This document shows positions 2,370 through 18,524 of a stretch of 26,499 bases of DNA, in pieces (within the stretch, counting starts at the first letter, position 1; every line of letters starts with the position of its first letter). The DNA is taken from positions 1-26,499 of IMG/VR virus record IMGVR_UViG_3300034524_000064; one strand, 5' to 3'. Source of the DNA: a virus. Both the position numbers and the translations under genes were made by a program. The notes below the pieces were generated by a model that searched no databases, was not told the DNA's origin, and worked only from the letters and a program-made list of their open reading frames with translations.

Positions 2370-4667
2370 ATGCCATTGATTATACCAGAATATATTGAAA
2401 TCCGTAATGCTACTGGTCAAACAGTAGCTTATTTATCTCCTGATGCTGATGGATTAAAAGAAGTCTGGATTGATCAACGATTAAATGGAGAATGTACTTT
2501 AAGTTTCCAATTACCTTTAAATTCAGATAAATGGAGTGCTCTTACACCTGAATGTCGTATTATTGCTGGAGGTAGAGAATTTGTTGTTTTACTTCCAGAT
2601 GTAATAGATATTGAACGTGATAATCAAGGTAAAACATGGGGAAAGGTTACAGCACACGAAAGCTGGATTTTACTTGATAAGCAGTATCCTACTGTTTCAA
2701 ATGATCCACAGAATCCTACCCCTGCTGATTTACAGGTAAGCATTATTTCAGGCGGCCCATCTACTGGAGGGTATCCACAAGGTAGCGCAGGAAGCGCTCT
2801 AACTTATTTACTGCAAAATTCTGGTTGGTCAGTAGGAACAGTAGATGTTACAGGCACACACGATTTAGAAACAGAAAAAGAAAGCCTTTTGGCTAATATA
2901 AAGAAAGTACAAGAAATATGGGGTGGATATTTAGTTTGGGATAGTATTAATAAAACTGTTTCCTTACGAGCTGAAGCTACTTGGCAAAATTATAGTGGTT
3001 TTCAGATAAGATATGCAAAAAATCTTAAAAGTATTACTAGAACTGCTAATTATGATATTATCACAAGGTTATATCCGTTTGGTCAAGATGACTTAGATAT
3101 TTCAAGTGTGAATAATGGAGTTAAGTATTTAGAAGATTTTAGTTATACTTCCAATATTTATGTTGGTATTTATCAAAATCAGGATATATCTGATCCACAA
3201 GAATTAAAAGATAAGGCAAGTGAAGTTCTTTCTAAACTCTGTAAACCACGTTATACTTATCGAGTTCAAATAGTTGATCTAAGAACACTACCTGAATATA
3301 GTCATGAAGATTTTATTTTAGGTGATCTTGTAGATGTAATAGATGAACAGTTAGATATTAATGTTAGAACTAGAATTATACGTCATAAATATAATGTTTT
3401 CCAACCTTGGCGTTGCGAGTTAGAATTGGGAGAGCCAGAAGAACGATTAGCAGTACAACTTGCAGAATCTTTTGATGCGGCAAGATTTGTTCGGGAAGCA
3501 TTAAGACCTAATCCTGCTACTTCTAATCTGCTTAAAGGATTTATTAATACATTCGCTACCCAAATTAATAGTGCCAACGGTAAATTGGTATGGAATGATT
3601 CTACTTTAGAAGCTATAGAAATAAATGCAAACGGAAATGAAACAGGCCGTAGAGTAAGAATTACGCCTGGCGGTATTGGAGTAAGTATTGACGGTGGTCA
3701 AACTTATGAAACAGCCATGACAGGGGCCGGTGTGTTGGCAAATAAAGTTATTGTAAATGAGTTATACGCCTTGGCTACTGATGATGGCCTTACCAAATTA
3801 GCAGCAGACGGTTTGCATGTATATGACAGAAATTTAGCAGAACGACTGATAGCTGGCCGCTGGATTGAAGGTACACAAGAGCATTTTGGACTAAAAGCAG
3901 TAGCTCAAGATGGCCGAACTGTTTTATTAGACGATCGAGGCATCCTGCAAACATGGCAGGAAGGAAGGGCAGATAATGTAGACGCCAATAATCCTTTAGT
4001 TTTAAACATTTATTTGCCAGCAGAAACACGCGAAATTAAAAGGGCTTTATTGCGATTTAAACTACAGGCATTTAGAGCTTATGAGACAGGGGCAGCGAGT
4101 GGGGGAGGAACATCAAAAACATCTAGTAGTTATTTAGGAGAAGTTGTTACCAGTTCTACTCAACCTTCAACAGTTCAAAGTAGTGCAGGATCTATATGGA
4201 ATTATGGTACAACCTATGTACCAGAACCCATGACAACTGAGGGTGGTCATAATCATGGTATTCCCGATGGTACAGCTTTAATGACAGCTGATGGAGGCAC
4301 AGTTTGGTTTGCACAATCAGGATACCATACACACGCTATTGACACAGATCATAATCATAATGTAACTATACCAAGTCATAATCATACTGTTAATATACCT
4401 TCACATTCTCATACAGTCGATATACCTAATCATTCGCATGGCCTTGTTTTTGGCATTTATACCTCAACTCGAGCGTCTAACATTACCATAAAAATTAACG
4501 GTGTAGATAGAACTTCAATATTAGGTGGCCCTTTTACAGTAGATCAAAATAGTCTTGATATAAAACAATATTTAAGTATAGGCCAATGGAATACTATTGA
4601 AATTGGTAGTAGTACTTTAGGAAGGGTGGATGCTTCCTTATTTATTCAAACCTTACTTACTGTTTAA
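2370..4667 (+). CDS. Tail-associated endopeptidase / tail tip protein (Tal) with His-rich fibre region
   Basis: A 765-residue protein. I chose ATG 2370 because AGAAGGTGG lies just upstream; an 18-codon upstream extension overlaps the Dit gene. The first 370 or so residues (IRNATGQTVAYLSPDADG, later YRVQIVDLRTLPEYSHEDF and GDLVDVIDEQLDI) fit the prophage endopeptidase tail family, the baseplate protein that follows Dit. The C-terminal third is fibre-like and includes a run of HxH motifs (about nucleotides 4243-4440: GHNHG, HTH, HNHN, SHNHT, SHSHT, NHSHG), a pattern that coordinates metal ions in trimeric phage fibres. The protein probably combines the tail tip with the receptor-binding region. 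Its stop overlaps the convergent stop of the moron. Confidence 0.83.
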   Translation: MPLIIPEYIEIRNATGQTVAYLSPDADGLKEVWIDQRLNGECTLSFQLPLNSDKWSALTPECRIIAGGREFVVLLPDVIDIERDNQGKTWGKVTAHESWILLDKQYPTVSNDPQNPTPADLQVSIISGGPSTGGYPQGSAGSALTYLLQNSGWSVGTVDVTGTHDLETEKESLLANIKKVQEIWGGYLVWDSINKTVSLRAEATWQNYSGFQIRYAKNLKSITRTANYDIITRLYPFGQDDLDISSVNNGVKYLEDFSYTSNIYVGIYQNQDISDPQELKDKASEVLSKLCKPRYTYRVQIVDLRTLPEYSHEDFILGDLVDVIDEQLDINVRTRIIRHKYNVFQPWRCELELGEPEERLAVQLAESFDAARFVREALRPNPATSNLLKGFINTFATQINSANGKLVWNDSTLEAIEINANGNETGRRVRITPGGIGVSIDGGQTYETAMTGAGVLANKVIVNELYALATDDGLTKLAADGLHVYDRNLAERLIAGRWIEGTQEHFGLKAVAQDGRTVLLDDRGILQTWQEGRADNVDANNPLVLNIYLPAETREIKRALLRFKLQAFRAYETGAASGGGTSKTSSSYLGEVVTSSTQPSTVQSSAGSIWNYGTTYVPEPMTTEGGHNHGIPDGTALMTADGGTVWFAQSGYHTHAIDTDHNHNVTIPSHNHTVNIPSHSHTVDIPNHSHGLVFGIYTSTRASNITIKINGVDRTSILGGPFTVDQNSLDIKQYLSIGQWNTIEIGSSTLGRVDASLFIQTLLTV

Positions 4668-16948: not shown

Positions 16949-17563
16949 ATGATTGAATATAGATATTCATACAAAGATCCTGTGGTAGTACAGAAAATAG
17001 CTCAAACTATTTGTGATTTAAGGCAGGAATTAGATCGAGATCAAACACGTCAACTTGTAATAGTCTGTATAGGTACTGATCGTTCTACTGGAGATAGTCT
17101 GGGGCCATTGGTAGGTACTTTTATAAGAGAAAAATTAATAGATAAACTAACTGTTTATGGAACTTTAGATGAACCTGTTCATGCTTTGAATTTAAGAGAG
17201 TGTTTAAATAATATTAAACAAATTAAAAATCCATTAATAATTGCTGTTGATGCATCATTAGGTAGAGAAAAAAGTGTAGGTGATATTATTATTGGGAAGG
17301 GAAGTCTTATACCAGGTATTGGTGTAAATAAAGAGTTACCTAAAATTGGGGATATATTCATTAAGGGAATAGTTAATATTGATGCAAGTCATTTTAGTAA
17401 TAGTTTTACACATTTGATACTGCAAAATACTCGTTTAGGATTGGTATGGAAAATGGCTAATGTAATTGCTAGAGGAATTGAGAAAGCTATAACACAAGAT
17501 AGAATAAATGATATGTATTCTAGTTCATATTGTGAGTATGCTGTGGTAAGCTGTGTTAGCTAA
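16949..17563 (+). CDS. YyaC-like sporulation protein (GPR-like protease fold)
   Basis: A 204-residue protein from ATG 16949 with GGGTGAG upstream. Recognised by IVCIGTDRSTGDSLGPLVG, YGTLDEPVHALNL, PLIIAVDASLGREKSVGDI, PGIGVNKELPKIGDI and FTHLILQNTRLGLVWKMA. These match the YyaC family, of full length here (about 200 residues), which is related to the germination protease GPR and is confined to endospore formers. The Asp-rich motifs IGTDR and VDAS are intact. It is odd for a phage to carry this between replication genes and a structured RNA region. It may act on sporulation or germination to help phage entrapment or exit from spores. The family is clear; the function in phage is inferred. Confidence 0.85.
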   Translation: MIEYRYSYKDPVVVQKIAQTICDLRQELDRDQTRQLVIVCIGTDRSTGDSLGPLVGTFIREKLIDKLTVYGTLDEPVHALNLRECLNNIKQIKNPLIIAVDASLGREKSVGDIIIGKGSLIPGIGVNKELPKIGDIFIKGIVNIDASHFSNSFTHLILQNTRLGLVWKMANVIARGIEKAITQDRINDMYSSSYCEYAVVSCVS

Positions 17564-17800
17564 CTCCGAGGTGGGTCGAAGTGCATTGGCTGGAGTTGTT
17601 CCGGTGGACTTCGGCGCAAGGGTAAGAATTAAATTGCCGTGGAGCTTTAGGCTCGCGTCAATCAATTGATAAAGGGTAGCCAAGTAGGGGAGAGAAATCG
17701 GCGCCACCGAAAGGCGTGTAGGGGTTGGCTACTGCTTGTATAAGCCCCGAGGTGGGAGCGCAAAGCCCACCATGCAAGGTGCAAATCCTTGCTCCTGTCG
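17564..17800 (+). ncRNA. Candidate structured noncoding RNA
   Basis: A GC-rich stretch in an AT-rich region with no supported ORF. Helices seen: GTCGAAGT (17575-17582) with ACTTCGGC (17608-17615); AACTCC (17562-17567) with GGAGTT (17592-17597), which would make a pseudoknot with the first; GAGC/GCTC (17642-17645/17651-17654); an 8-base helix GTAGCCAA (17676-17683) with TTGGCTAC (17725-17732) enclosing CGCC/GGCG (17702-17705/17713-17716); GCTT/AAGC (17734-17737/17742-17745); GGTGGG/CCCACC (17751-17756/17766-17771); and GCAAGG/CCTTGC (17774-17779/17787-17792) around TGCAAAT, which resembles a tRNA T arm. The decamer CCGAGGTGGG occurs at both ends. I do not recognise a known family. It could be a phage RNA, a ribozyme or a leader of the next gene. 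Confidence 0.6.
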
Positions 17801-17829
17801 AACTATATATTAAAATAGGGGTGATACCA

Positions 17830-18033
17830 TTGCGAATAGGTACTAAACGTTTTTCAATTTGGATTAAGTTATATAAAGGTAAAACTAATTGGCATACAGG
17901 GAATTATACACTTATTCTTGCTAAAGGAAAGTATTTTGAGAATGAAGGCTATGACGGTTGGGGCTGGACGAATTTGAGGTTTATTCCAATAGGAAAAAGA
18001 ATTAAACACGATTGGAGGCGTGAGTTAAAGTAA
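17830..18033 (+). CDS. Small basic hypothetical protein
   Basis: A 67-residue product from TTG 17830, 5 bases after AGGGGTGAT. An upstream in-frame TTG at 17725 lies inside the structured RNA region and is unlikely to be the start. The protein is rich in Lys, Trp and Tyr (FSIWIKLYKGKTNWHTGNYT, GYDGWGWTNLRFIPI) and basic at the end (KRIKHDWRRELK). The function is not recognised. Its stop overlaps the beginning of the next coding region. Confidence 0.55.
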   Translation: MRIGTKRFSIWIKLYKGKTNWHTGNYTLILAKGKYFENEGYDGWGWTNLRFIPIGKRIKHDWRRELK

Positions 18034-18035
18034 AC

Positions 18036-18524
18036 ATCAATCCAAAAGATTTTCAAGCATGTTTAGCAGTTGGTACTGTAGCAGAAGAAGAAATAAGAAA
18101 ATTTTGTAAACAGTATGGTCTTGATATTGTACGAGCTGATGAGGCAGCTAAAGATAATCCAGACTTTATGCTGCCTCTTTATTTGGAGTCTAAAGTTCAA
18201 TCAACACCCTTTAGAAAGGCACAAGAAAAATTTGGCATAGAGCCTGGTAAGTGCATAACGATTAACGTTAAAAATCTTAAAAAGTATAAGAATTTACCTT
18301 GCTTAATCGTATTTATAGTTGATTATCAAGAGTATAGCACTAGCGGTTTTTACTGCATCAGTTCTAAAAAGCTTTGGCAGTTATATAAGAGTCATCCTGA
18401 ATGGCATTACACTTTAAAGTTTCGTGGTCGAAAACATAAAACTAAAAATTTTGCATTTAGCATTGATTATTGTTATCCATTAGAAAAAGTTTTAGATTGT
18501 TTAAATGAAATTTTTGGAGGATGA
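18036..18524 (+). CDS. PD-(D/E)XK nuclease-like protein without an obvious start codon
   Basis: The frame stays open and coding-like from an in-frame TGA at 18021 to TGA 18522-18524. The first ATG is 18168, but upstream sequence clearly reads as protein (INPKDFQACLAVGTVAEEE, FCKQYGLDIVRADEAA). The core NPDFMLPLYLESKVQ fits the PD-x(n)-ExK pattern of restriction and Holliday-junction type nucleases, and a start at 18168 would remove the catalytic Asp. GGAGG (18014-18018) lies upstream, but the codons after it are GTT, AAA, GTA, AAC and ATC. I set the start at ATC 18036 only provisionally. The previous gene's TAA overlaps GTA 18030. A mutated or rare start, or coupling to the upstream gene, is possible. 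Confidence 0.55.
   Translation: MNPKDFQACLAVGTVAEEEIRKFCKQYGLDIVRADEAAKDNPDFMLPLYLESKVQSTPFRKAQEKFGIEPGKCITINVKNLKKYKNLPCLIVFIVDYQEYSTSGFYCISSKKLWQLYKSHPEWHYTLKFRGRKHKTKNFAFSIDYCYPLEKVLDCLNEIFGG

What the first reader, a model, noticed from the sequence alone, without database searches (positions are those of the whole stretch)
17564..17800. GC-rich structured RNA candidate between YyaC-like gene and a small ORF
At least six helices can be drawn, including an 8-base helix closing over an internal hairpin, a potential H-type pseudoknot at the 5' end and a 3' hairpin with a tRNA T-arm-like loop. Base composition differs sharply from its AT-rich neighbours and no supported ORF covers it. It does not match a family I can name. 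A link to sporulation control is possible because of the neighbouring YyaC-like gene; other large bacterial RNAs, such as the raiA motif RNA, are about this size and could be compared.
Basis: partly seen in the sequence, partly recalled or inferred. Interest (0 to 1): 0.75.

Follow-up and report, generated by a model that had tools for sequence, protein, structure and literature searches.

The report
Phage tRNA-like scaffold RNA, truncated copy
The stretch is a non-coding RNA locus of a phage whose 3' end is a broken copy of a very common but apparently undescribed kind of phage RNA: a transfer-RNA body whose anticodon arm has been replaced by a fast-changing insert.

Summary
The interval is a real non-coding, GC-rich RNA locus, but not a raiA-like or sporulation RNA. 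Its T-arm-like 3' hairpin (17774-17792, then acceptor strand 17793-17799) belongs to a widespread phage RNA family that I found neither in Rfam 15 nor in the papers searched. From IMG/VR and GTDB I collected 227 distinct members. Each has a 7-bp acceptor stem, a tRNA-Leu-type D-arm, a 6-bp T-stem with loop TGCAAAT (G at position 55) and no anticodon arm. In its place sits an insert of usually 50-80 nt, and inserts are swapped between otherwise identical scaffolds. In 52 aligned members 11 of 16 pairs show compensatory changes (207 cells against 49 in shuffles). Base 73 (A) and U at +1/+2 are enriched as in CCA-less pre-tRNAs cut by RNase Z. The window copy is truncated: D-arm and 5' acceptor strand are missing. 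A 99.9% identical sibling phage (L130) still has that half, and its 5' acceptor strand pairs 7/7 with the window's 3' strand. The rest (17553-17731) is a separate multibranch domain closed by a 15-bp helix in L130 (z -4.2). Likely mechanism, inferred: processed like a tRNA, the scaffold displays a variable RNA cargo, perhaps as a decoy for a tRNA-binding host or defence factor.

The parts
17553..17731 (+). 5' multibranch RNA domain, outer helix P1 17557-17567/17721-17731 (15 bp in sibling L130: GTGTTAGCTAACTCC/GGGGTTGGCTAACAC)
   Evidence: fold of L130 copy z -4.18, 0/200 shuffles; alignment window/L130/L128; no covariation test possible, only near-identical copies known
17572..17618 (+). long hairpin in the 5' domain (predicted)
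   Evidence: fold
17621..17638 (+). hairpin GGTAA/TTGCC in the 5' domain (predicted)
   Evidence: fold
17642..17654 (+). short hairpin in the 5' domain (predicted)
   Evidence: fold
17657..17670 (+). hairpin TCAAT/ATTGA in the 5' domain (predicted)
   Evidence: fold
17701..17717 (+). hairpin (CGCC/GGCG) in the 5' domain (predicted)
   Evidence: fold
17732..17750 (+). junction where the window diverges from sibling L130; L130 has here a degenerate tRNA-like module and the 5' half of a second one
17751..17771 (+). hairpin GGTGGG/CCCACC, equivalent in position to helix b of the family insert, followed by conserved AT
   Evidence: fold; helix at this place enriched in family inserts (mean 5.6 bp against 3.9 shuffled)
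17774..17792 (+). T-arm of the tRNA-like module: stem GCAAGG/CCTTGC, loop TGCAAAT (U55 replaced by G)
   Evidence: exact match in >120 viral stretches; model R1 hit 24.8 bits, E 7e-6
17793..17799 (+). 3' strand of the acceptor stem, TCCTGTC; its 5' partner is absent from the window and present in L130 as GGCGGGA (3924-3930), 7/7 pairs incl. 2 G-U
17825..17889 (+). 65-nt segment just downstream that is absent from the otherwise identical phage L128/L126; holds the start of the small ORF 17830-18033

Best explanation
The interval is the non-coding RNA locus of a Bacillota-type phage. It has two parts. A 5' multibranch domain (17553-17731) is closed by a long helix. A 3' part (about 17751-17799) is the truncated 3' half of a tRNA-like module: insert helix, AT, T-arm, acceptor 3' strand. 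Complete modules in other phages have acceptor stem, D-arm and T-arm of a tRNA, no anticodon arm, and a variable insert in its place. How it most likely works: (shown) acceptor and T stem are kept by compensatory change, D-arm and T-loop are nearly invariant, and inserts are exchanged between scaffolds with identical flanks; (inferred from enriched A73 and U at +1/+2) host RNase P and RNase Z cut the module out of a longer, probably late, transcript as if it were a tRNA, possibly followed by CCA addition; (inferred) the stable tRNA body protects and displays the insert, a natural version of the laboratory tRNA scaffold; (speculative, about 0.3) the fast-changing product is a decoy or inhibitor of a tRNA-binding host or defence factor. 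The window's own copy lacks the D-arm and 5' acceptor strand, so it should not be processed in this way; it is best read as a deletion or recombination product at a hypervariable spot.
For: T-arm identity over phages of Enterococcus, Listeria, Brochothrix, Paenibacillus and Herelleviridae. In loci found only by T-arm sequence, 75 of 86 distinct copies have a 7/7 acceptor stem plus D-arm. In a scan that left T-stem, acceptor and base 55 free, 92 of 114 distinct copies pair 7/7 at the acceptor (chance 4% by shuffling), 95 of 114 have 6/6 T-stem pairs, 106 of 114 have G55. Alignment of 52: 100% of cells paired, 11 of 16 pairs with double changes, 207 double-change cells against 48.7 shuffled and 20-47 slid; RNAalifold predicts the same 16 pairs unaided. 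Sibling L130, 99.9% identical over 3.8 kb, carries D-arm and 5' acceptor GGCGGGA that pair 7/7 with the window's TCCTGTC. A73 58% against 31% and U at +1/+2 68% against 44%, matching the U rule for B. subtilis RNase Z (PMC10100781). Modularity: 14 insert families on more than one acceptor, 30 pairs with the same downstream flank and different inserts. Tandem modules a few nt apart. Flanking tRNAs 89 same strand, 0 opposite.
Against: The window itself has no D-arm or 5' acceptor strand within 17000-18300 even with filters off. The 5' domain has no distant homologue, so its structure rests on energy alone. Base 73 of the window is G and no U follows at +1/+2. Discriminator base is A in only 58% of copies and CCA is not part of the scaffold, so charging is doubtful. 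No expression data. No gene partner recurs strongly enough to name a target. Inserts show no excess of antisense matches to their own locus.
Confidence: 0.75

Rival explanations
1. Decayed tRNA-Leu genes: the modules are pseudogenes of ordinary phage tRNAs that picked up insertions.
For: D-arm is that of tRNA-Leu; tRNAs lie within 1 kb in 45 of 269 loci; the window copy really is broken.
Against: Perfect acceptor and T stems with many compensatory pair types, a shared non-tRNA hallmark (G55, 6-bp T-stem, CAT before the T-arm) across unrelated phages, and no tRNA-Leu remnant of the anticodon arm. Decay would break stems.
Confidence: 0.05
2. A DNA-level element: conserved D-arm and T-arm blocks are recombination or packaging sites and the RNA fold is incidental.
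For: Inserts are exchanged between identical flanks; many copies sit between a late activator and the terminase genes, near the packaging region.
Against: Acceptor and T-stem vary freely in sequence but keep pairing, and A73 plus downstream U are enriched; these are RNA-level signals. The conserved blocks may still help exchange as a side effect.
Confidence: 0.08
3. The window RNA is a cis regulator of the downstream small ORF or methyltransferase: CTCCTGT after the T-arm can pair with the Shine-Dalgarno-like ATAGGGG at 17815-17821.
For: 7/7 pairing with G-U between CTCCTGT and ATAGGGG; the ORF starts at 17830 just behind.
Against: The sibling L128 lacks 17825-17889 with the ORF start; the ORF has no relative in phages; acceptor sequence of relatives varies freely, so no conserved anti-SD.
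Confidence: 0.07
4. A divergent member of a known large phage RNA (GOLLD, ROOL) or of raiA RNA.
For: Similar size range, phage location, neighbourhood of tRNAs (PMC12286853).
Against: No Rfam match at gathering threshold in window or 33 relative loci, none relevant at E up to 10 in the interval; different anatomy.
Confidence: 0.03

Closest known systems
tRNA (Rfam RF00005), in particular bacterial tRNA-Leu
   Same: 7-bp acceptor, U8, D-arm GGCGGAATAGGTAGACGC, T-loop with C56, A58, U60, enriched A73, downstream U
   Different: no anticodon arm, insert of 2-288 nt instead, G55 in place of U55, T-stem 6 bp, not called by Rfam or ARAGORN
tmRNA (RF00023)
   Same: tRNA-like domain whose anticodon region is replaced by another RNA; one copy lies beside a phage tmRNA (L006)
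   Different: no tag reading frame (insert lengths not in multiples of 3), insert hypervariable, D-arm intact
GOLLD and ROOL RNAs
   Same: large phage RNAs near tRNA clusters, unknown function; GOLLD linkers can hold tRNAs (PMC12286853)
   Different: no sequence or Rfam match; here the tRNA body is itself the scaffold
allo-tRNA and tRNA-Sec (13-bp acceptor-T stack)
   Same: acceptor plus T-stem add up to 13 bp; irregular tRNA polycistrons known from soil metatranscriptomes (PMC7609411)
   Different: those keep an anticodon arm
engineered tRNA scaffold used to express RNAs in E. coli (from my own knowledge; PMC3753655 is listed)
   Same: foreign RNA put in place of the anticodon arm
   Different: natural, in phages, with exchangeable inserts

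Membership tests
Phage tRNA-like scaffold RNA (family defined here) | T-arm with 6-bp stem and loop TGCRAAT preceded by AT | tested here: met
   window 17772-17792, R1 hit 24.8 bits
Phage tRNA-like scaffold RNA (family defined here) | 7-bp acceptor stem | tested here: not met
   3' strand present, 5' partner absent in window; present in sibling L130
Phage tRNA-like scaffold RNA (family defined here) | tRNA-Leu-type D-arm | tested here: not met
   absent in window; present in L130 3931-3949. The window copy is therefore a truncated derivative, not an intact member
Phage tRNA-like scaffold RNA (family defined here) | helix closing the insert directly before AT and T-arm | tested here: met
   GGTGGG/CCCACC 17751-17771
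tRNA | anticodon arm and score above Rfam/ARAGORN threshold | tested here: not met
tmRNA | tag reading frame and match to RF00023 | tested here: not met
raiA, GOLLD, ROOL RNA | match to the Rfam covariance model | tested here: not met
   window; relatives
tRNA-processing substrate (RNase P/RNase Z) | cleavage at positions 1 and 73 | not testable with these tools
   only indirect: A73 and downstream U enrichment in the family; both absent in the window copy

The most novel reading that the evidence does not exclude
Phages of Bacillota carry a natural tRNA-scaffold cassette system: tRNA bodies without anticodon arm, processed by host tRNA enzymes, that display exchangeable hypervariable RNA inserts, with variants on several tRNA backbones (the TGCAAAT family plus bodies with canonical D- and T-arms). 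The inserts act as fast-evolving RNA effectors against host tRNA-directed defences or other host factors.
Probability: 0.3. Interest if true: 0.92.

Novelty: new variant of a known kind. Interest (0 to 1): 0.75.

Why it matters
If right, a common RNA of temperate Bacillota phages has been overlooked because tRNA finders demand an anticodon arm. It would be a natural counterpart of the laboratory tRNA scaffold, with rapidly exchanged cargo, and it offers a ready experimental handle (Listeria, Lactobacillaceae and Enterococcus prophages can be induced) on what anticodon-less tRNAs are for in phages.

Tried and rejected
H-type pseudoknot in the insert (order a-b-a'-b'): helix b is strongly enriched, helix a is at chance (5.3 against 5.0 bp), so dropped. 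Antisense of inserts to their own phage: at chance. Coding of inserts: lengths evenly spread over the three frames. Permuted module in the window (5' half behind the 3' half, using ATAGGGG 17815 and GCGAATAGGTA 17832-17842): the D-stem and spacing do not fit and the segment is absent in L128; left as unexplained similarity. Distant homologues of the 5' domain by nhmmer in all fetched loci: only a weak hit, E 0.09; by a 17-base word in IMG/VR: only the siblings. The minus strand folds better than its shuffles over the whole interval (z -3.17) but relatives, genes and the T-arm/D-arm order are on the plus strand. One locus (L265) is a genuine tRNA-Leu and was removed. The prevalence tally counted some 85-nt matches near 45 bits, which may be genuine tRNA-Leu, so it is an upper estimate (7 of 300 genomes, one of them the chosen seed). 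Literature searches for a described family found none; subscription papers are not held.

Full report
What is in the window. The interval lies between a DUF1256/YyaC-like gene (16949-17563; Pfam PF06866) and a small ORF (17830-18033, no Pfam and no phage relative) in a phage contig with integrase, family A DNA polymerase, a sigma-factor-like protein and a DNA methylase. G+C reaches 56% against about 30% on both sides. Rfam 15 finds nothing in the window, and nothing relevant in the interval at E up to 10; ARAGORN finds no tRNA or tmRNA. The fold energy of the window copy is not unusual (z -0.76).

The 3' hairpin is a shared element. A sensitive blastn against named phages gave 22-24 identical bases around the 3' hairpin in 29 records from Enterococcus, Listeria, Brochothrix and Paenibacillus phages, in unannotated gaps or, in two Listeria phages, under small predicted ORFs. 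Reading them side by side showed a common plan upstream of the hairpin: a 7-base word, TGGCGGAATAGGTAGACGC, a variable stretch ending in CAT, the hairpin GCAAGG-TGCAAAT-CCTTGC, and a 7-base word complementary to the first. That is acceptor stem, U8, tRNA-Leu D-arm, insert, T-arm and acceptor of a tRNA, without anticodon arm.

The family. A second scan fixed only the D-arm and a loose T-loop (TNCRAAT) and left T-stem, acceptor and base 55 free: of 114 distinct matches 92 pair 7/7 at the acceptor, against 4% when acceptor strands are dealt at random, 95 pair 6/6 in the T-stem and 106 have G at position 55. Together with 75 GTDB stretches there are 228 distinct copies, 227 without the tRNA-Leu L265. 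Hosts with names are mostly Listeria, Paenibacillus, Bacillaceae, Lactobacillaceae, Leuconostoc, Weissella, Lachnospiraceae, Oscillospiraceae and Erysipelotrichaceae; a few MAGs of other phyla also match. In an even draw of 300 genomes of the Paenibacillus phylum 7 had a strong match, one of them the seed itself.

Structure. In an alignment of 52 diverse copies the 16 pairs of acceptor, D-stem and T-stem form in 100% of cells, 11 pairs have compensatory changes, 207 cells are double changes against 48.7 in shuffles and 20-47 when slid. RNAalifold without a given structure predicts exactly these pairs. Copies in the alignment were chosen partly for good acceptor pairing, so the unbiased figures are those. 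The D-stem is invariant and gives no covariation test. In the insert only one helix is supported, the one whose 3' strand ends right before AT and the T-arm (mean 5.6 bp against 3.9 in shuffles). Insert length is mostly 50-80 nt, range 2-288.

Signs of tRNA-like processing. Base 73 is A in 58% (background 31%), and a U lies at +1 or +2 behind it in 68% (background 44%, p about 6e-11). In B. subtilis, RNase Z acts on pre-tRNAs without encoded CCA and is stimulated about 200-fold by a uracil within 2 nt of the discriminator (PMC10100781, read). Position -1 is enriched in U (41% against 26%). tRNAs within 1 kb are all on the same strand (89 to 0), and modules can follow each other by 2-6 nt. These are inferences from sequence; no RNA data were available.

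Modularity. There are 183 insert families among about 227 copies. Fourteen insert families occur on more than one acceptor sequence and 30 pairs of loci share the downstream flank but carry unrelated inserts. The invariant D-arm and T-arm blocks would serve well as crossover sites. Inserts carry no excess antisense match to their own locus and no reading-frame signal.

Context. Upstream neighbours are often late transcription activators (phrog_248 and phrog_36 in 14 and 13 of 60 proteins, overlapping sets), downstream ones terminase subunits and HNH endonucleases. Others sit in tRNA or tmRNA clusters.

Back to the window. The covariance model of the family hits only the T-arm part, 17762-17792 (24.8 bits, E 7e-6), even with filters off. 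No D-arm or 5' acceptor strand is present nearby. Three contigs of the same phage exist in IMG/VR. L128 (with L126 the same contig) equals the window through the RNA but lacks 17825-17889. L129 ends at 17697. L130 equals the window to 17731 and then continues differently. L130 has first a degenerate module (3795-3914, 16.3 bits, acceptor GCGGTAG/CTACCGT) and then the 5' half of a regular one at 3924, where the contig ends. Its 5' acceptor strand GGCGGGA pairs 7/7 (two G-U) with the window's 3' strand TCCTGTC, which chance would give in about 1 of 1000 tries for random letters. I conclude that the window copy derives from such an array by loss of the degenerate module and the 5' half of the regular one. 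Two independent-looking assemblies show the truncated form, which argues against a chimaera but does not exclude it.

The 5' domain. In L130 GTGTTAGCTAACTCC pairs with GGGGTTGGCTAACAC over 15 bp and encloses several hairpins (z -4.18, 0 of 200 shuffles). In the window the outer helix keeps 11 bp. It overlaps the stop codon of the DUF1256 gene. No distant homologue was found, so this part is supported by energy only.

Function. Shown: homology, pairing under selection, insert exchange. Inferred: release as a tRNA-like RNA from a longer, probably late, transcript. Speculative: the product is a decoy or inhibitor that must change quickly, which fits the hypervariable cargo and phage tRNAs being used against tRNA-cleaving defences (for example PMC13096335, abstract). 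The window copy, lacking half of the scaffold, is probably not processed this way.

A wider pattern. In the same loci a search for modules with canonical D-arm and T-loop TTCRANY found 63 candidates, 47 of them tRNAs known to ARAGORN and 16 without anticodon arm, 13 of these within 1 kb of a scaffold RNA; dealing the acceptor strands at random gave 1. So anticodon-less tRNA bodies in phages may be a broader class than the TGCAAAT family.

Noticed in passing
L172 2435-2555 and 2156-2294, L305 6765-6848, L284 6486-6548, L146 4118-4176, L302 7348-7406, L195 4589-4649, L055 7440-7498 (coordinates along the strand that carries the RNA): tRNA-like bodies with canonical D-arm and T-loop TTCRANY but the anticodon arm replaced by 9-159 nt, not called by ARAGORN; 16 found against 1 in a dealt control.
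   Followed up: partly
L130 3795-3914: Degenerate tRNA-like module with closing helix GCGGTAG/CTACCGT, a 9-bp insert helix CATATCCGC/GCGGATATG and an unusual T-loop, about 9 nt upstream of a regular module.
   Followed up: partly
window 17825-17889: 65-nt indel between otherwise identical phages (window against L128) that removes the start of the small ORF; the segment contains GCGAATAGGTA (17832-17842), similar to the D-loop of the family.
   Followed up: partly
L306 7368-7784 (G006:C45:247368-247784): Three tRNA-like modules in tandem, about 5 nt apart, in an Oscillospiraceae genome.
   Followed up: no
L007 2119-2169: Rfam mcrA RNA (RF03010, 72.5 bits) directly downstream of the scaffold RNA in Listeria phage LP-114.
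   Followed up: no
L003 2019-2153 (Listeria phage B054 gp75): An annotated small ORF that starts inside the T-arm of the RNA region and is probably not a gene.
   Followed up: no
window 16949-17563: Phage-encoded DUF1256/YyaC-like protein; relatives at 30-50% identity in Paenibacillus phage Lilo, Bacillus phage G and Clostridioides phages.
   Followed up: no
window 17540-17830, minus strand: The reverse strand folds better than its shuffles (z -3.17), without any known relative there.
   Followed up: no
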